Shown here piece by piece: positions 1,162 to 8,253 of a DNA stretch of 8,425 nt. The notes below the pieces were generated by a model, which worked only from the letters and a program-made list of their open reading frames with translations, had not been told where the DNA came from and ran no database searches. The number at the start of each line of letters is the position of its first letter. Within the stretch, counting starts at the first letter, position 1. The stretch comes from JALXCG01 sp026991065 [NCBI: Gemmatimonadota bacterium] (GTDB taxonomy: Bacteria > GCA-2686955), in the NCBI GenBank assembly GCA_026991065.1, contig JALXCG010000092.1:1-8425 (forward strand), given 5' to 3'. Made by a program: the position numbers and the translations under genes.

Positions 1162-3291
1162 TCAGAAGGGCCGGCGGGTGAGTTTGACCCGGTCGACACC
1201 GTTTACGCTCTGCCCGCTCACTGTGGCCAGGCCGACAATCGATCCGTTGCTACCCATGTAGCCGAGCAGACCGCCGTTGGTCGCCATGACACCGAGCAGG
1301 CCACCGTTGCCGGCGAGCATTCCCAGCAGGCCGCCGTTGCCGCCGATGAAGCCCAGCAGGCCACCGTTGCCGGCGATCAGTTCGAGGACCGTGCCGTTGG
1401 CATCGATCAGCCCCAGCATGCCGCCATTGGCGGCGAGCATCTCCAAGAGGCCGCCGTTGTTGGTAATCATGCCCAAAAGGCCACCGTTGTTGGCGATGGT
1501 GCCGAGCAGGGCGCCGTTGTTGTTCAGGAATCCGAGCAGGCCGCCGTTGTTCTGGATGAAGCTCAGCAAGCCGCCGTCAACGCCGACCAGTTCCTCCAGG
1601 GTCCAATCGGCGAGGAAATACTGGGCGATGTCGCACACGCTCTCGTAGGTACCGTCGTCTTCCACTTCGCTCTCGAACTCACGGGAGTCGCAGCCGCTGT
1701 CGATGAAGGCGTAGAGACCGGTTTCATCCTCAAGCAGCAACAGCAGGCCCTCCGGAGTGTCGACGATTTCGCCGAAAAAGCCTTCGGGATAGAAGGCCGG
1801 GATCGCCGCGTAGTCGGCGATGAAGCCGTTCAGTGTTTTCTCGACGCCTTCACCCAAAGTGACCGGGTTGTCCAGCGGCTGCGTCATGCTAATCCGGCCA
1901 TAGCCGAAGTGATCATTCCAACAGGAGGTGCGCTTGACTTTGTGGCTTTCGTCGCCGTCGTCGTCATCGAACGACTGCGCGACTCCGGTAGCGCAATTGG
2001 TTTCGTCTCCCCCTTCATCGGGCGAGACGCAGCCGGCCAGAATCAGCGAGCGTATGGTCGCGGCGCTGAGGTCGTCGTAGGTGCTGCGCAGTAGCGCGGC
2101 CAGCGCGGCCACTTGCGGCGCCGCCTGGCTGGTGCCCACGGCGTACCAGTAACCGATGGATCGATCGGAATCATCGGGGTCGAAACTGATCGACAGAATG
2201 GCGTCGGGCTCGCCGTCGCCATCCGCGTCTTCCGGCAGGCCGCCATAGGCCAGCAGGTCGAGCCCCGCGCCCCAATTGGAGTAGGAGGCGGGATGACCGT
2301 ATTTGTCCATGGCGCCAACCGCGATCACTTCATTGAAGGCCGCGGGAAAGGAGACCATGCCCACGCCGTCATTGCCGGTTGAAGCGACCAACACAATGTC
2401 CGCGGCGGCGGCATCGGCGATCTTCTCCTGCAGCGTTTCGCCCGGGAAGAACCCCGGCGAGAAGGAGAGACTCATGTTGATGACGCCGGCGTCGTGGTCG
2501 ATCGCCCAGTCCAGCGCGCTAATCAAGGCATCCAGCGAGCCGACCCCAGCGGCATCCAGCACCCGCAGCGGCATCACCGAAATGTCCGGTGCCATCCCGG
2601 CCAGGCCAAAGTAGTTGTTGGTACGCACATTGAGCATGCCGGCGGTGTGGGTGCCGTGGCCGTTGAAGTCATCCGGCACGTCGTCACCATCCACAAAATC
2701 CCAGGGGGCCGCCATGTCGCGGTGAAAATTCCAGCCGCGGTGGGCCCACTTGACACCGCTGTCCAGCACCGCCACTCGGACCGACGGCTGGCCGGTGCCG
2801 TGCTTTCCCCACACATGCTCCATATCCAGTTCACTGAAGTGCCACTGGTCCTCGTAATAGCGGTCGTTCGGTTCCCAGGTCTCGCCCTGAGCACTCATGA
2901 TGGCATTGGGCTCGGCGAAGCGCACCGCGGCATCCGCGCGGAGAACCCGCGCGGCGTTGCGAAGGCGGTCGGCGTGGTCGTTGTAGGCCTGACCGGTGGC
3001 GCGAATTGCGGCGGCCAGTTCCGCCGCCGGTGGCAGCGTCACCACATAGGTGTTCCGGTCCACCTGGCGGGAGACCTGAATCTGGTAGCGCTCGGCAACC
3101 GCGGCGGCGGCGGCCGGGGAGACCCCGGACTCCAGCTTCACCACCAGTTCCCCGTCAACCACGGGAACCGGGTGGCCGGCGGCACGGTCGAACAGCATCG
3201 TTGTGTTCCACGCGTTGGCCCGCGACGACACCAACACCCCCACGACCAAGCTGAGCTTGATCCATCCGTACAATCGCCGAGCACGTAACAT
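1162..3291 (-). CDS. Secreted subtilisin-like serine protease (peptidase S8) with C-terminal NGGLLG decapeptide repeats
   Basis: This is a predicted extracellular endopeptidase of 709 residues. A Sec signal peptide (about 1-27, basic MLRARR then a hydrophobic core, likely cleavage after ANA) is followed by a propeptide-like segment (about 47-130: GELVVKL, TYVVTLP, VRFAEPN), then PNDRYYEDQWHF, typical of the mature start of thermitase-like subtilases. The catalytic triad is complete: Asp177 (VAVLDSG), His212 (NGHGTHTAG) and Ser388 (GTSQAAP). The oxyanion Asn is 307 (ASTGNDG). An acidic loop, DADGDGEPD (355-363), resembles a calcium site. After the catalytic domain (ends near 420) come an acidic, Cys-containing region (421-570; Cys421, 433, 457, 534, 553) and a 120-residue repeat array (571-690). 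The frame stays open upstream to 3738, but ATG 3291 is chosen because it begins the signal peptide and has GGAG six bases upstream. The gene is monocistronic, convergent with acnB and divergent from the acyltransferase. Substrate is unknown. Confidence 0.93.
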   Translation of the reverse strand: MLRARRLYGWIKLSLVVGVLVSSRANAWNTTMLFDRAAGHPVPVVDGELVVKLESGVSPAAAAAVAERYQIQVSRQVDRNTYVVTLPPAAELAAAIRATGQAYNDHADRLRNAARVLRADAAVRFAEPNAIMSAQGETWEPNDRYYEDQWHFSELDMEHVWGKHGTGQPSVRVAVLDSGVKWAHRGWNFHRDMAAPWDFVDGDDVPDDFNGHGTHTAGMLNVRTNNYFGLAGMAPDISVMPLRVLDAAGVGSLDALISALDWAIDHDAGVINMSLSFSPGFFPGETLQEKIADAAAADIVLVASTGNDGVGMVSFPAAFNEVIAVGAMDKYGHPASYSNWGAGLDLLAYGGLPEDADGDGEPDAILSISFDPDDSDRSIGYWYAVGTSQAAPQVAALAALLRSTYDDLSAATIRSLILAGCVSPDEGGDETNCATGVAQSFDDDDGDESHKVKRTSCWNDHFGYGRISMTQPLDNPVTLGEGVEKTLNGFIADYAAIPAFYPEGFFGEIVDTPEGLLLLLEDETGLYAFIDSGCDSREFESEVEDDGTYESVCDIAQYFLADWTLEELVGVDGGLLSFIQNNGGLLGFLNNNGALLGTIANNGGLLGMITNNGGLLEMLAANGGMLGLIDANGTVLELIAGNGGLLGFIGGNGGLLGMLAGNGGLLGVMATNGGLLGYMGSNGSIVGLATVSGQSVNGVDRVKLTRRPF
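1222..1581 (-). repeat. Twelve tandem 30-bp repeats encoding a 10-residue NGGLLG motif
   Basis: The repeats span residues 571-690 of the subtilase. Consensus per unit is x-N-G-G-L-L-G-x-h-x (h hydrophobic). Units in order start VDGGLLSFIQ, NNGGLLGFLN, NNGALLGTIA, NNGGLLGMIT, NNGGLLEMLA, ANGGMLGLID, ANGTVLELIA, GNGGLLGFIG, GNGGLLGMLA, GNGGLLGVMA, TNGGLLGYMG and SNGSIVGLAT. On the plus strand the hallmark cc(g/a)ccgttg recurs at 1271, 1301, 1331, 1361, 1451, 1481 and 1541, with variants at 1241, 1391, 1421, 1511 and 1571, always 30 bases apart. Units at both ends and unit 7 are the most diverged. The absence of any indel across 360 bp indicates selection for the exact 10-residue period. They differ from RTX nonapeptides, which carry an Asp and have a period of nine. 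Confidence 0.95.
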
Positions 3292-3297
3292 AAGCGT

Positions 3298-3301
3298 CTC
3301 C
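3298..3301 (-). promoter_or_regulatory. Ribosome binding site fixing the protease start
   Basis: On the minus strand the sequence reads TTTGGAGACGCTTATG. GGAG lies six bases before ATG 3291. This supports the start at the signal peptide rather than at the in-frame ATG 447 bases upstream, which would put a non-conserved, low-complexity 149-residue extension in front of the signal peptide. Confidence 0.7.
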
Positions 3302-3475
3302 AAAGATGTGCGAACCTCGCTGCCTGGCCCGGTTCTCGCACAACAGATCCGGGTGAGAACGCCGAGCCGATGGACGCCGGCATCAGTCTGCAGAACTTGT
3401 GCCAGCCGCACGATTGCCATTTGCAAGCCGTGAGTACGTTGAAATCGCGAGGCTTCCACTGGAGATGTCGGTTTC

Positions 3476-3524
3476 GTGCGATTTGCACTACAGAAGAAGT
3501 GCGATCGTTGTCCAACAATCGCAC
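3476..3524. promoter_or_regulatory. Putative operator: 26-bp palindrome plus additional GTGCGAT half-site
   Basis: GTGCGATCGTTG (3499-3510) and CAACAATCGCAC (3513-3524) are inverted repeats matching at 11 of 12 positions, with only TC between them. A further GTGCGAT starts at 3476 inside GTGCGATTTGCAC (3476-3488), itself a GTGC/GCAC dyad. That gives three copies of the same heptamer in 49 bases, two direct and one inverted. No T tract adjoins on either side, so it is not a terminator. Its location between divergent genes fits a dimeric regulator binding site. The regulator is unknown. Confidence 0.5.
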
Positions 3525-3583
3525 AGCGAGGAGAAAAAGCTGCGCAGGTGGCGCGCGGGTGGTGGGGGCGCCGCGGGAAATCC

Positions 3584-3612
3584 GCCACAGCGGAGGGCAG
3601 GATCGGTAGAAT
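3584..3612 (+). promoter_or_regulatory. Weak candidate sigma70-type promoter for the acyltransferase operon
   Basis: TAGAAT (3607-3612) matches the -10 consensus at five of six bases. The hexamer 17 bases upstream, GCCACA (3584-3589), matches only three of six of the -35 consensus. Transcription would then begin around 3619, just at the leader hairpin. This is low-certainty pattern matching in a lineage whose promoter consensus is unknown. Confidence 0.25.
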
Positions 3613-3618
3613 TCGAGT

Positions 3619-3642
3619 GGTCACGGGAGCATCTCCGTGACC
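3619..3642 (+). other. Leader hairpin upstream of the acyltransferase gene
   Basis: GGTCACGGGAG (3619-3629) pairs with CTCCGTGACC (3633-3642): ten base pairs with one bulged G and a three-base loop, CAT. It lies 44 bases before the start codon and is not followed by T residues, so it is not an intrinsic terminator. It could be a 5'-end mRNA stabiliser or a protein-binding dyad. Confidence 0.4.
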
Positions 3643-3673
3643 GCCACCCCGGTGCAGGAAAACCGCCCCTTCC

Positions 3674-3679
3674 GGAAGG
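3674..3679 (+). promoter_or_regulatory. Ribosome binding site fixing the acyltransferase start
   Basis: GGAAGG lies seven bases before ATG 3687. The same frame is open back to 3399, but no earlier start has a comparable site and the upstream translation is arginine-rich and unlike the family. Confidence 0.65.
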
Positions 3680-3686
3680 CCACGCC

Positions 3687-4598
3687 ATGCCGCTGCCCGA
3701 CCTCCCGTCCACTTCCGACAGTCGGCCGCCGCTCTCACGCAGAATTTTCGCAGCGCTGCTCGCCACCCTGCTCTTTGCCACGCTCATGCTGCTCAATCTC
3801 TTACAGATGTGCAGCATTCTTCTGTGGCCCTTCTCGCGGCGCTACTTCCGCGCCGTCAACCGCTGGGCCGCAAAGAGCTTCTGGGGGGCCGTGGTGGCCG
3901 CCGCGCGGCGTTGCTACGGCGTGGAGGTGAGGCTCAGCGGCGATCCTCCGCCGGCGGCGGAGAACGCCATCGTGGTCCTGAATCACCAGGGGATGGCCGA
4001 CATACCGGTGCTCCTCGACGTCGCCTCGCGAACCGAGCGTCTGGGCGACCTGAAGTGGTTCGCCAAGGATGTCATCAAGTGGGTGCCCGGTGTGGGCTGG
4101 GGGCTGCTTTTCCTCGACTGCATCTTTCTCAAGCGCAACTGGGCGGCGGACCAGGATTCGATCCGGGCGACCTTCCAGCGCTTGATCACCGCGCGGATCC
4201 CCTGCTGGATCGTCACTTTTGTCGAAGGCACCCGCACCCGCCCGGAGAAGTTGGAGGCCAGCCGGCGTTACGCCGCCGAGCACGACCTGCCGCTTCTGGA
4301 CCATCTGCTGCTGCCGCGCACCAAGGGGTTTACCGCCACGGTTAGCGGGATGCGCAATCATGTACAGGCGATCTATGATTGCACCATCGGCTATGTCGAT
4401 GGCGTGCCCAGCCTCGGGCAGTGGATTCAAGGGCGCATGCCGGTTGTGAACTTCGATTTTCGACGGATCGAGATCGGCGACCTGCCGCGGGACCCGGAGG
4501 CTCTCTCGGCCTGGCTGATGGAGCGCTGGAAAATCAAAGACCGGCGCCTCGACATTTACTATCGAACCGGCGCGTTTCCGGTCGCCGACCCTCTCTGA
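3687..4598 (+). CDS. PlsC/AGPAT-family 1-acyl-glycerol-3-phosphate acyltransferase-like membrane protein
   Basis: The 303-residue protein probably transfers an acyl chain to a lysophospholipid at the inner membrane. A hydrophobic N-terminal segment (about 19-47, FAALLATLLFATLMLLNLL) should anchor it. The acyltransferase motifs appear in order: the catalytic H-X4-D in NHQGMAD (His100, Asp105), the FLKR block (147-150) corresponding to motif II, FVEGTRT (178-184, motif III) and LLLPRTKGF (207-215, motif IV). The C-terminal part (AWLMERWKIKDRRLDIYYRTGAFP, 275-298) resembles the tail of eukaryotic AGPAT3/4-type and bacterial YihG-type enzymes more than housekeeping PlsC, which is shorter. The true acceptor, lysophosphatidate or another lysolipid, cannot be told. 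The gene begins a run of three plus-strand genes; the next start is 53 bases downstream. Motifs are intact and the enzyme is probably active. Confidence 0.88.
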   Translation: MPLPDLPSTSDSRPPLSRRIFAALLATLLFATLMLLNLLQMCSILLWPFSRRYFRAVNRWAAKSFWGAVVAAARRCYGVEVRLSGDPPPAAENAIVVLNHQGMADIPVLLDVASRTERLGDLKWFAKDVIKWVPGVGWGLLFLDCIFLKRNWAADQDSIRATFQRLITARIPCWIVTFVEGTRTRPEKLEASRRYAAEHDLPLLDHLLLPRTKGFTATVSGMRNHVQAIYDCTIGYVDGVPSLGQWIQGRMPVVNFDFRRIEIGDLPRDPEALSAWLMERWKIKDRRLDIYYRTGAFPVADPL

Positions 4599-5478: not shown

Positions 5479-8253
5479 ATGATCGCTCTCCCGGGGCGCG
5501 CGCGGTGCGCGCCGCATGCACCGACTGCTCTGGCCCTCGCCTTCGCCTTCGCCCTCGCTCCACTCACCCCGGCCTCCAGCGCCACCGCTGCGGACGGCGC
5601 CGACGCCACGCTCGCCATGAAGAGGGCGACTGCCCGGGTCGACAGCACGCTGGCCCACCATCCGCAGGGGCAACAGATCGCCGCCTGGCTGCGCTCCGCC
5701 CCGGAGCGGGAGCGGCAAGCGGCGGAGTTCCTGCTCGCCTGGATGCCGGCGTCGGACCTGGGCAGTGTGAGCGCGGGCATGCTGCGCGCGGAGGTGCGGG
5801 AGGCGCTGGCGACCTGGGACGCGACCCCCTGGGCGGCCGACACGCCGCCGGCGCTGTTTTTCCACTATGTGCTCCCCTACCGGGTGAGCCAGGAGCAACC
5901 GGACTCGCTCTGTCGCCCGACTCTGCGGGCTGCCCTGGCCGAACGGGTTGCCGGCCTTGATCTGCCGGATGCGGCCATTGAAGTCAACCGCTGGTGCAAT
6001 GAGCAGGTCGATTTCGTCTCCACCAGCGCCCGCGACCAGCCGCCGCTGGTAACCCTGGCGCGCGGTTGGGGGCGCTGCGAGGAGCGGATGATACTGGCGA
6101 TCGCGGCGATGCGCGCGGTGGGAATTCCCGCCCGCGCCTGCTCCACCCCCTGGTGGACCACGACCGACAACAACCATGCCTGGCTGGAGGCCTGGACCGG
6201 TGCCGCGAACGGCTGGGGCTACCTGGAAGCATGCGATGGCAGCACCTGCATGAACCACGCCTGGTTCTCGCGACCGGCGCAACGCGCCGGCGTGGTGATC
6301 TCCACGGCCTGGGGCGAGGCGCCGAGCGCGGCGGTCGGCGGCGACCATTTTCTCCGTTCGCGCCACGGGGTCACGCTGATCAACTCCACAGCGACCTATA
6401 CCGATCCCGGGCGCCTGCTGATTCCGGAGTTGGCGGACTCCGTGGAGGTGGCGGTGAACGCCTTCAACTACGGGGGCTTCTTTCCCCTGGTGCATGTCAA
6501 GGGCGGCGAGAGCATCGAACTCGGCCCCGGCGACTATCTTTTGAGCACCGAAATCAACGGCCGGATGGCGCTCGACATCGCCCGCATCCGCCCCGGCAAA
6601 GAGTTCCGAGCAACGCTGGAGCACGGCGCCGAGTTTCTCCGCTCTCCCCACTGGCTCCGCTATCCACACCTGGATCGCCCCCTGGCGGAGTGCCCCAAGC
6701 CGGCGCCGACCGATGCCCGCTGGTTGCGGCACAAGTTGGACCGGGAGACCAATCTGCGCCGCCGCGATGTGGCCGAGGCCGCTGGTCGTGACTGGATCGT
6801 CGCGCTGGCTGACAGTTCCACGGTGGCCGCCGAGTTTCCACCGGCGGCGCTGGAAGATGCGATGGAGCGCGCCGGCAATGCCCGCGGCGCCTGGGAGAAG
6901 GCGCTCCTCGCGCTCGACGGCGACGCCGCGCGCACCGCTTTCCGCCTGGTCCAGGAGATGGACGCCAAGGATTTCCGCGAACTCTCGGCGGATGCCCTGC
7001 CGGCACTGACCGAGCGCATGCTGGAGCTGCGCGCCCGCTACGCGCCCGATCTGGCGGACAGCACCTGGCAGCATTACGTGATCTCGCCACGGCTCTACTA
7101 CCAGGCCGGCACCCAGGGCTGGTGGCAGGCGCTGCCCCTGGCTCCCCCGGGAACCTCCGCCGGTGCGCTGCTGCAACGCTTTCGCGACCATGTGCGGCGC
7201 GCTCCCGAGAGTGTTTTCGGCCACGTCGCCACGCCGGAACAGACCTGGCGCAGCGGTTGGGCCGACGGCGCCTCGGCCAAAGCCTGTCTCACCGCCCTGC
7301 TGCGCATCCACGGCATTCCGGCCCGCGCTGTTCGTGGCCGCGCGACGATCGACTACCGCCATGAGGGCGCGTGGGTTCCCATGCGTCCCTTCCCCGAAGC
7401 GAATGGCGGAACGACGACCGCCGCGGCCGCCGCAGATGCGGAGGGCAACGCCGCCCCGGCGGCGCACGGCCACCTGCTGGTCCACTACAGCGCCAACGGC
7501 GCCCCTTTCCAGGCCATCTCCACGTGGCGCCAGACCCTGCTCAGCCGCTTCGAGGATGGCGGGTTCCACCCGGTCTACGAGGGCCAGCTCTATGAGCGCG
7601 ACGGCGCGGTCGCCTGGGATCTGGCTCCCGGTGACTACTGGCTCTCCGCCGGCCTGCGCAACAGTCTGGGCGAGCCGCGCTTCTTCGCCGAGCCGGTGAC
7701 CATTGTCGCCGCCGACACCCTGCGGCTGAACCTGGAGATCGGCATCCCCCTGGATGAGCTGGATGAGGGCTCGATCCTGCGCCGCAAGCTCGACCTGAGT
7801 CTCCCCTGCCCACTGCTGGCAAGCGGCCACGGCAGCGGCCACGGCGCGGCCGCCGCGACCACCGATCTGCGCGCGCTCCTGCCCGCCCATGAGCCGGTGG
7901 TGATTCTGCTGCTGGCAAGCGACCACGAGCCGAGCGCACGCCACCGCCAGGCCCTGCTGGCACAGGCCGCCACGCTCCCCACCATCATCACCATCCAGCT
8001 TCCCGGTTCGGCTTCAACCGCCGGCAACTGCGCCACCGCAAACGCAACGACCCCACCCCCCGCGGGCAGTTACGCAATCGACGCCGCAACCGCCAAGGCC
8101 CTCTTCGGCATCACCAACCCAACCACCCAGGCACCGCTCTCCATCCTGCTGGATCGCACCCACGCCACACGCATCTGGATGACCGGCATGCAGCAGGGCC
8201 TGGCGGACCTGATCCGCGCCCGCCTCCGGGAGACCGGCGGCGGTGCAAATTAA
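5479..8253 (+). CDS. Exported protein with two transglutaminase-like modules (second catalytically degenerate) and a thioredoxin-like tail
   Basis: The 924-residue protein starts at ATG 5479, eight bases after AAGGAA. A signal peptide (about 1-37; Arg8/Arg10, then ALALAFAFALAPL, cleavage near ASSA or ATA) sends it to the periplasm or outside. Module 1 (about 125-380) has a transglutaminase-like cysteine peptidase/acyltransferase core: Cys200 (GWGRCEE), GIPAR (215-219), His233 (DNNHAWLEAW) and Asp253 (YLEACDGS), then MNHAWFSRPAQRA and a beta-rich segment, GGFFPL...LGPGDYLLS. A helical linker follows (about 410-530). Module 2 (about 530-755) repeats GW, GIPAR, GGFHPV and LAPGDYWLS, but has Gly597 and Gly630 where Cys and His should be. 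After a Gly/His/Ala linker (GHGSGHGAAAATT, 783-795) the last ~125 residues (PVVILLLASDHEPS...APLSILLDR) look like a thioredoxin fold without the cysteine pair. The substrate is unknown; peptide crosslinking or cleavage is possible. It ends the three-gene run and meets a minus-strand gene tail to tail. Confidence 0.87.
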   Translation: MIALPGRARCAPHAPTALALAFAFALAPLTPASSATAADGADATLAMKRATARVDSTLAHHPQGQQIAAWLRSAPERERQAAEFLLAWMPASDLGSVSAGMLRAEVREALATWDATPWAADTPPALFFHYVLPYRVSQEQPDSLCRPTLRAALAERVAGLDLPDAAIEVNRWCNEQVDFVSTSARDQPPLVTLARGWGRCEERMILAIAAMRAVGIPARACSTPWWTTTDNNHAWLEAWTGAANGWGYLEACDGSTCMNHAWFSRPAQRAGVVISTAWGEAPSAAVGGDHFLRSRHGVTLINSTATYTDPGRLLIPELADSVEVAVNAFNYGGFFPLVHVKGGESIELGPGDYLLSTEINGRMALDIARIRPGKEFRATLEHGAEFLRSPHWLRYPHLDRPLAECPKPAPTDARWLRHKLDRETNLRRRDVAEAAGRDWIVALADSSTVAAEFPPAALEDAMERAGNARGAWEKALLALDGDAARTAFRLVQEMDAKDFRELSADALPALTERMLELRARYAPDLADSTWQHYVISPRLYYQAGTQGWWQALPLAPPGTSAGALLQRFRDHVRRAPESVFGHVATPEQTWRSGWADGASAKACLTALLRIHGIPARAVRGRATIDYRHEGAWVPMRPFPEANGGTTTAAAAADAEGNAAPAAHGHLLVHYSANGAPFQAISTWRQTLLSRFEDGGFHPVYEGQLYERDGAVAWDLAPGDYWLSAGLRNSLGEPRFFAEPVTIVAADTLRLNLEIGIPLDELDEGSILRRKLDLSLPCPLLASGHGSGHGAAAATTDLRALLPAHEPVVILLLASDHEPSARHRQALLAQAATLPTIITIQLPGSASTAGNCATANATTPPPAGSYAIDAATAKALFGITNPTTQAPLSILLDRTHATRIWMTGMQQGLADLIRARLRETGGGAN

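What the first reader, a model, noticed from the sequence alone, without database searches (positions are those of the whole stretch)
7255..7395. Second transglutaminase module has glycine at both the catalytic Cys and His positions
Aligning the two modules without gaps at an offset of 397 residues, GWGRC (196-200) falls on GWADG (593-597), GIPAR (215) on GIPAR (612), and NNHAW (231-235) on HEGAW (628-632). Thus Cys200 becomes Gly597 and His233 becomes Gly630, while the surrounding fold residues are kept. The Asp-bearing segment (EACDGS...MNHAWF) is also missing and is partly replaced by an Ala-rich stretch. The pattern looks like a pseudoenzyme domain kept for binding or for regulating the active module.
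Basis: partly seen in the sequence, partly recalled or inferred. Interest (0 to 1): 0.6.

Follow-up and report, generated by a model that had tools for sequence, protein, structure and literature searches.

The report
Dead transglutaminase paired with active one
This bacterial protein fuses a working transglutaminase-like enzyme to a dead copy of itself, and the same living-plus-dead pair, as one protein or as two genes, recurs in many bacterial phyla including gut Bacteroidales, which suggests the dead half is kept to help or control the live one.

Summary
The 924-aa ORF at 5479-8253 (+) has two modules. Module 1 keeps Cys200/His233. Module 2, the finding, is a true duplicate of the whole unit (hhalign 99.9%, E 8.5e-31) and has lost the active site. 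Cys200->Gly597 is right. His233->Gly630 is wrong: the profile alignment gives Arg621 and strand order agrees. The loss is old: no Cys in 63 of 63 readable second modules, His in 2 of 63; active and dead cores part on one branch (SH-aLRT 99); dN is below dS in the two unsaturated close pairs. Of 59 named loci not cut at contig ends, 58 have the dead module in the same genome: 40 in one chain, 11 in neighbouring genes, 7 elsewhere; in one (L025) the partner lacks the dead core. Parabacteroides and Phocaeicola share the architecture. A thioredoxin-like tail without CxxC follows. Best reading: a pseudoenzyme subunit that holds, shapes or regulates the active module outside the cytoplasm; contact is inferred. 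Inactive bacterial transglutaminases were known (PMC3482391, PMC12239564, passages seen); a constant active/dead pair was not seen in our literature searches.

The parts
5479..8253 (+). gene for the 924-aa two-module protein, including the stop codon
   Evidence: ORF; translation; only full-length match in its own genome
5479..5592 (+). probable signal peptide (residues 1-38)
   Evidence: hydrophobic N-terminus by inspection, helix 17-25 and low pLDDT; no signal-peptide program was run
5668..6312 (+). module 1: N-terminal helices plus active transglutaminase-like core (residues 64-278)
   Evidence: Pfam Transglut_core, model, matches to 3isr and animal transglutaminases
6076..6078 (+). catalytic Cys200
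   Evidence: Cys in 66 of 66 module-1 rows (the scan patterns partly selected for it)
6175..6177 (+). catalytic His233
   Evidence: His in 64 of 64 readable module-1 rows (same selection caveat)
6235..6237 (+). Asp253, likely acid of the active module
   Evidence: column is Glu in 58 and Asp in 3 of 66; the usual Asp site (residue 250) is Gly in 60 of 66
6346..6609 (+). beta-sandwich 1 (residues 290-377), 3e8v-like
   Evidence: profile match to PDB 3e8v, E 1.2e-6
6928..7398 (+). module 2: helices plus dead transglutaminase-like core (residues 484-640)
   Evidence: hhalign, model of residues 483-757 with pLDDT 86.8, 3isr Z 10.1 over 130 residues
7267..7269 (+). Gly597 at the Cys site
7339..7341 (+). 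Arg621 at the His site (not Gly630)
   Evidence: strand order
7384..7386 (+). Arg636 at the classical Asp site (Trp632+4)
7468..7737 (+). beta-sandwich 2 (residues 664-753), also 3e8v-like
   Evidence: VIA Z 8.4 to 3e8v over 80 residues
7768..8238 (+). thioredoxin-like tail without CxxC (residues 764-920)
   Evidence: CcmG/ResA/peroxiredoxin-type matches, Z 10.0-11.6; no CxxC in 53 of 53 tails over 80 aa

Best explanation
The gene encodes an exported enzyme built from two copies of one ancestral unit (helices, papain-like transglutaminase core, beta-sandwich). The first copy keeps Cys, His and an acid and is the enzyme. The second lost Cys early, most simply once, and is retained as a pseudoenzyme that stays with the first copy, either in one chain or as an exported partner protein, and holds or shapes it: substrate docking, stabilisation or control of the cleft. 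The thioredoxin-like tail without CxxC most likely adds a further peptide-binding surface. Shown here: duplication, loss of the active site, antiquity, dN below dS in close pairs, near-constant pairing, fusion and gene adjacency. Inferred: export, direct contact, and docking or regulation as the effect. Not addressed: substrate and reaction (transamidation, deamidation or proteolysis).
For: Homology of the whole unit: hhalign 99.9%, E 8.5e-31. Dead site: 0 Cys of 63, 2 His of 63; 5 further stand-alone modules (read by eye) and 2 Bacteroidales modules also lack Cys. Fold kept: module-2 model pLDDT 86.8, best VIA match 3isr Z 10.1, 4.0 A, 130 aligned; GIPxR Arg kept in 51 of 63 and the strand Glu in 50 of 63. 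One split: tree of 64 active and 65 dead cores, one change, SH-aLRT 99 (quick method, no bootstrap). Selection: dN 0.087/dS 0.63 for module 2 in L019/L022 and 0.049/0.28 for the separate dead protein in L030/L043; the other three pairs are saturated in dS. Pairing: 58 of 59 uncut named loci have the dead module in the genome. In 290 sampled genomes, partly the same as the named ones, 18 have the active module at 200 bits or more; 17 of these have a dead one and the 18th, G082, is cut at a contig end. Coupling: of 12 neighbouring pairs, 5 have a candidate start overlapping the upstream stop by 4 bp, 1 by 8 bp, 3 (close relatives) start 1 bp after it; L035 and L072 have longer gaps, L054 the reverse order. 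In the 10 pairs where both partners were looked at, both have an N-terminal hydrophobic stretch (hydropathy only). The same pair occurring fused and as neighbouring genes is the classical sign of a complex.
Against: No contact was shown; coordinates and inter-domain error were not available, and pTM 0.85 is only suggestive. The dead core evolves faster (mean identity 24% against 46% for the active core; 51 loci, 1,275 pairs), so no invariant pocket or interface residue stands out. In 7 of 59 uncut loci the dead partner lies elsewhere in the genome. In L025 the neighbouring partner keeps sandwich and tail but has no dead core, so the core is not always needed. Two genomes of one genus (G104, G241) have a lone dead module and no full active one. 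Weaker active-like modules (102-125 bits) stand without a strong dead module in G106, G107, G153 and G243; G153's is fused to an esterase-like stretch. Two homologues (L012, L014) keep His and Asp in module 2. His is frequent at two columns in the N-terminal helices of module 2 (15 of 67 and 32 of 66), outside the core and not in the window.
Confidence: 0.58

Rival explanations
1. Module 2 is a targeting or ligand-binding module (cell wall, polysaccharide or exported protein) that merely brings the enzyme to its place, without acting on the active module.
For: Zhang et al. (PMC3482391, passages seen) proposed surface anchoring by peptide binding for inactive transglutaminase domains of polymorphic toxins; the partner carries extra putative binding domains, and in L025 these alone remain. 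Some loci lie near PorV/PorQ-like genes and a type IX sorted protein.
Against: A targeting module would work in the active chain; as a separate protein it still has to bind the enzyme. The whole unit was duplicated, and the dead module accompanies the enzyme in 58 of 59 uncut loci.
Confidence: 0.27
2. Module 2 has a different, non-thiol catalytic activity.
For: Many homologues share a G-x-G-[ST]-x-x-[DE] motif at the old Cys loop (column 596 Thr 28 and Ser 16 of 64; column 599 Asp 19 and Glu 18 of 63).
Against: No invariant polar residue in the core; the window itself reads DGAS there; the motif fits a helix N-cap (inference). No column with more than 20% Cys or His inside the transglutaminase core.
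Confidence: 0.07
3. Module 2 is a decaying remnant of a tandem duplication or a local error of this assembly.
For: Module 2 evolves faster than module 1; in L050 the frame breaks inside it and in L060 an assembly gap (N) lies in it; in L025 the dead core is gone.
Against: Open and alignable in records titled as 10 phyla and in Bacteroidota, predicted to fold, dN below dS, retained even when unlinked.
Confidence: 0.04

Closest known systems
Inactive transglutaminase domains of bacterial polymorphic toxins (Zhang et al. 2012, PMC3482391; passages seen)
   Same: Exported bacterial transglutaminase-fold domains that lost one or more of C, H, D; proposed to bind peptides
   Different: [quoted passage not shown] here it is the second half of an active/dead pair, and no RHS or toxin family was found
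RloB, inactive transglutaminase fused to 7 TM helices (PMC12239564; a similar gene in PMC12096838; passages seen)
   Same: Inactive transglutaminase domain facing the periplasm, in an operon
   Different: 7 TM helices, operon with an ATP-grasp protein and an aspartic protease, 96% of hits in Proteobacteria (paper); no active transglutaminase partner is named in the passages seen
Bacteroidales 'transglutaminase domain-containing protein' such as WP_228002570.1, and B. fragilis fragment 3e8v
   Same: Same architecture: active module, 3e8v-like sandwich, dead second module, tail without Cys
   Different: Annotated only by the active domain; lipobox-like N-termini by inspection
Eukaryotic inactive members: EPB42, XPC, FBXO21, C2D2A (PMC10318531, passages seen)
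   Same: Papain-like fold kept without catalysis
   Different: No pairing with an active paralogue is named in the passages seen
MPN+/MPN- pairs such as Rpn11-Rpn8 (recalled, no call)
   Same: Works like: active paralogue held by a dead paralogue
   Different: Unrelated fold; analogy only

Membership tests
Transglutaminase-like superfamily (Pfam PF01841), module 1 | Profile match and Cys/His active site | tested here: met
   70.6 bits for the whole protein, best stretch 162-247; Cys200, His233
Transglutaminase-like superfamily (Pfam PF01841), module 2 | Profile match above the curated cut-off | tested here: not met
   18.4 bits against 23 for window residues 411-924; yet 26 of 32 second modules, window included, match at E 0.01 or better and hhalign to module 1 is 8.5e-31
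Transglutaminase-like superfamily, module 2 | Papain-like transglutaminase fold | tested here: met
   VIA: 3isr Z 10.1, 4.0 A, 130 aligned; 3kd4 Z 8.5. Foldseek alone ranks 3isr 11th at E 0.022, behind sandwich matches
Active transglutaminase-like enzyme, module 2 | Cys and His of the triad | tested here: not met
   Gly597 and Arg621; 0 of 63 Cys, 2 of 63 His
Inactive transglutaminase with 7 TM helices (RloB type) | Seven TM helices | tested here: not met
   Globular domains, no TM bundle in the model; only PF01841 found for the window in Pfam at E up to 1
Polymorphic-toxin inactive transglutaminase | N-terminal position followed by RHS repeats and a toxin domain | tested here: not met
   Second half of the protein; no RHS or toxin family for the window or the 5 homologues
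Thioredoxin/AhpC-TSA, C-terminal tail | Thioredoxin fold | tested here: met
   CcmG 2g0f Z 11.6, 3.4 A, 143 aligned
Thioredoxin/AhpC-TSA, C-terminal tail | CxxC redox motif | tested here: not met
   0 of 53 tails over 80 aa
Pseudoenzyme partner of an active paralogue | Physical binding to, and effect on, the active paralogue | not testable with these tools
   needs biochemistry or a two-chain prediction

The most novel reading that the evidence does not exclude
The dead module is an obligate subunit of the enzyme: the active module does not fold, bind substrate or turn over properly without it, so this is a bacterial counterpart of active/dead paralogue heterodimers, fixed before several phyla diverged or spread among them, and present unrecognised in gut Bacteroidales.
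Probability: 0.33. Interest if true: 0.75.

Novelty: new variant of a known kind. Interest (0 to 1): 0.55.

Why it matters
The record and the Pfam and NCBIfam models that I looked at name only the transglutaminase domain, so a pseudoenzyme has gone unmarked in a family found in records titled Planctomycetota, Cloacimonadota, Zixibacteria, Calditrichota, Krumholzibacteriota and others and in gut Bacteroidales. The natural split pairs make the question of what a dead enzyme does for a live one directly testable with two small proteins.

Tried and rejected
Gapless alignment of the two modules as the sole proof: rejected, 5 of 300 shuffles reach its score. Gly630 as the His site: rejected. Migrated Cys603/His628 dyad: rejected. 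Single-sequence scan of genome contigs found no relative; the alignment scan did. Profile of 3 dead modules against PDB sequences: nothing. The sister genus G001 shows only a 44-residue C-terminal match at a contig end; profile searches did not find the rest, so no close orthologue of module 2 could be read. The modules could not be superposed, as no coordinates are given. Neighbour genes gave no function: the recurrent families are PorV/PorQ-like (9 loci; 3 members scanned, L058 above and L024 and L028 below the family cut-off) and a family of which one member (L065) has a type IX sorting tail, mostly within Delongbacteria-type loci. Literature searches: searches gave no paper; some searches gave listings (33, 69 and 88 shown only in part), of which five papers were looked at by passages. 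No paper on an active/dead transglutaminase pair in bacteria was seen; the library lacks most subscription papers.

Limits of counts. Module-1 Cys/His conservation is partly by construction, since the scan patterns contain them; module-2 counts are not. Of 67 dead modules aligned, 4 (L038, L050, L057, L060) are cut or gapped at the sites and left out of the 63; two duplicates were dropped. The named loci are loci, not genomes: L071, L073 and L075 come from one assembly, L060 and L074 from another. Some sampled G genomes are the same as named ones (for example G008/L031, G004/L032, G017/L054). In the surveys only the best 5 to 7 candidates per genome were scored. Corrected on checking: I had counted L057 as fused, but its contig ends before the second core; and L025's partner, which I had taken for a cut piece, is a complete-looking gene without the dead core. 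G052 was at first taken as unlinked; both its genes lie at contig ends and may be one split gene.
Full report
WHAT IS THERE. The window is a whole contig (C92) of a fragmented genome (902 contigs, 84% complete). The ORF 5479-8253 (+) gives 924 aa. Its only Pfam family is Transglut_core, in two stretches. The coordinates and letters of the finding are correct.

THE REGISTER. The ungapped offset of 397 is the best of 450 offsets but not decisive: 5 of 300 shuffles reach the score. With profiles the homology is beyond doubt: five active modules (A1) against 32 second modules (A4) give hhalign 99.9%, E 8.5e-31 over 262 columns. The aligned unit includes the N-terminal helices, the core and the beta-sandwich, so the whole unit was duplicated. 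A loop of nine residues before the His is deleted in module 2, and His233 lands on Arg621, not Gly630. Two models agree: in the full-length model (35 rows, pLDDT 79.9, pTM 0.85) the helix that starts at Cys200 corresponds to helix 597-609, strand 233-239 to 624-628, and strand 246-249 to 631-635; the model of module 2 alone (39 rows, pLDDT 86.8, pTM 0.76) has the same elements. HEGAW 628-632 is thus the turn between two strands. Gly597 at the Cys site stands.

FOLD. VIA-align places module 2 alone nearest to 3isr, a transglutaminase-like protein (Z 10.1, 4.0 A, 130 aligned), and its sandwich on 3e8v (Z 8.4). Foldseek alone was weaker: its one match under E 0.001 was a sandwich protein, and 3isr came at E 0.022.

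IS THE SITE DEAD IN RELATIVES? An alignment scan of one genome per species (84,980 species, tool text) found 64 loci with the active module. Second modules from these loci and from genome-search loci gave 67 distinct sequences; 63 are readable at the sites, window included. Cys: 0 of 63. His: 2 of 63 (L012 and L014, which also keep Asp). The replacements at the Cys site are mixed (E 19, P 8, K 8, A 7, D 5, others). No column within the core has more than 20% Cys or His; in the N-terminal helices two columns hold His in 15 of 67 and 32 of 66, not in the window. Five further stand-alone modules and two Bacteroidales modules also lack Cys. What is kept is the fold: GIPxR (Arg 51 of 63), the strand Glu (50 of 63), Trp632 (48 of 64), and often a G-x-G-[ST]-x-x-[DE] motif in place of G-x-G-R-C-E-E, probably a helix cap (inference).

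HOW OLD AND HOW KEPT. In a tree of 64 active and 65 dead cores the two kinds part on one branch (SH-aLRT 99, one change; shuffled labels need 43 on average; quick method, no bootstrap). Active cores are on average 46% identical between loci, dead ones 24% (51 loci, 1,275 pairs), so the dead one evolves faster. Of five close pairs, two are unsaturated and show dN far below dS (L019/L022: 0.087/0.63 for module 2 and 0.040/0.75 for module 1; L030/L043: 0.049/0.28 for the dead and 0.063/0.24 for the active protein); the other three have dS over 2 or undefined.

THE PAIR. Of the 64 named loci, 5 are cut at contig ends before a second core could be seen (L057, L062, L073, L074, L075). Of the other 59, 40 have the second module in the same chain (in L050 the frame breaks inside it, in L060 an assembly gap lies in it), 11 in a neighbouring gene (L038 cut within it), and 7 elsewhere in the genome (L032; L024, L026, L028, L033, L040, L066). 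In one, L025, the neighbouring gene has a signal-like N-terminus, sandwich and tail but no dead core. So 58 of 59. Of 12 neighbouring pairs including G031 (L006), five have a candidate downstream start overlapping the upstream stop by 4 bp (L006, L034, L041, L068, L070), L067 by 8, and L030, L038 and L043 start 1 bp after it; L035 (270 bp) and L072 have gaps, and in L054 the dead gene comes first. Fused (39) and separate (12) states need two changes on the tree of active modules. In a sample of 290 genomes, 18 have the active module at 200 bits or more; 15 have a strong dead module, all among the 18; G141 and G278 carry a divergent dead module in the same chain, and G082 is cut. Against the rule: G104 and G241, of one genus, have a lone dead module of 336-339 aa and no full active one; G106, G107, G153 and G243 have weaker active-like modules (102-125 bits) and no strong dead one.

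WHERE. In the 10 separate pairs where both were looked at, both partners have a hydrophobic, signal-like N-terminal stretch; 5 of 11 active ones end it in a lipobox-like Cys (by inspection). Export of both, and anchoring of some active ones, is therefore likely (inference; no predictor was run).

GUT BACTEROIDALES. A tblastn search of plasmid records hit Parabacteroides distasonis over residues 62-633 and Phocaeicola massiliensis, and two Persicobacter records over 23%. The first two proteins have the complete architecture with a dead second module and a tail without Cys. The record calls the first 'transglutaminase domain-containing protein'. PDB 3e8v, a B. fragilis fragment, matches the beta-sandwich after the active module (E 1.2e-6).

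TAIL. Residues 764-920 fold like CcmG/ResA/peroxiredoxin (Z 10.0-11.6) but no CxxC is present in 53 of 53 tails over 80 aa; six of 32 second modules, one clade, lack the tail.

MECHANISM. Best reading: the dead copy is kept as a subunit of the active one for docking, stabilising or controlling it (0.58). Rivals: pure targeting module (0.27), other catalysis (0.07), remnant (0.04). The substrate is unknown.

KNOWN KINDS. Inactive transglutaminase domains are known in bacteria: polymorphic toxins (PMC3482391, passages) and RloB (PMC12239564, passages; also PMC12096838). Neither fits: no RHS repeats or toxin family, no 7 TM helices. HvyA of Caulobacter (PMC4241560, passages) is an active transglutaminase-like regulator of the capsule, a hint of the roles such exported enzymes can have. 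A constant active/dead pair was not seen in our searches. Hence: new variant of a known kind.

Noticed in passing
window 1234-1569, minus strand (end of ORF 1162-3738): A subtilase (Peptidase_S8, 144 bits) ends in about eleven tandem repeats of ten residues of the type NGGLLGxLxx, counted by eye (a stricter pattern finds 9); they look like a short solenoid or anchor.
   Followed up: partly
window 5668-6312 (module 1) and its homologues: The active module has Gly at the usual transglutaminase Asp site (60 of 66) and a conserved Glu/Asp three residues later (61 of 66): perhaps a shifted third catalytic residue.
   Followed up: partly
L012 and L014 second modules: Two second modules of the Krumholzibacteriota-type clade keep His and Asp while Cys is lost, perhaps a trace of the order of decay.
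   Followed up: no
L025 2564-3434: The partner gene next to this active module has a signal-like N-terminus, sandwich and thioredoxin-like tail but no dead core.
   Followed up: partly
L091 and L093 (G104, G241): A lone dead module without the active partner, in two species of one genus.
   Followed up: partly
L094 (G153): An active-like module followed by an esterase-like stretch (20.3 bits, below the cut-off of 22) instead of the dead module.
   Followed up: no
L058 4663-5706, L065 3041-5299, L024 6537-7448, L028 6945-7877: PorV/PorQ-like genes (L058 above, L024 and L028 below the cut-off) and a protein with a type IX sorting tail (L065) beside the pair.
   Followed up: partly
L064 and L069, C-terminal ends; also L050: Planctomycetota members carry TPR-like repeats behind the thioredoxin-like tail (L050 by inspection).
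   Followed up: no
G000 and G001: The window's phylum is represented by only two held genomes, so close comparison is hardly possible.
   Followed up: yes
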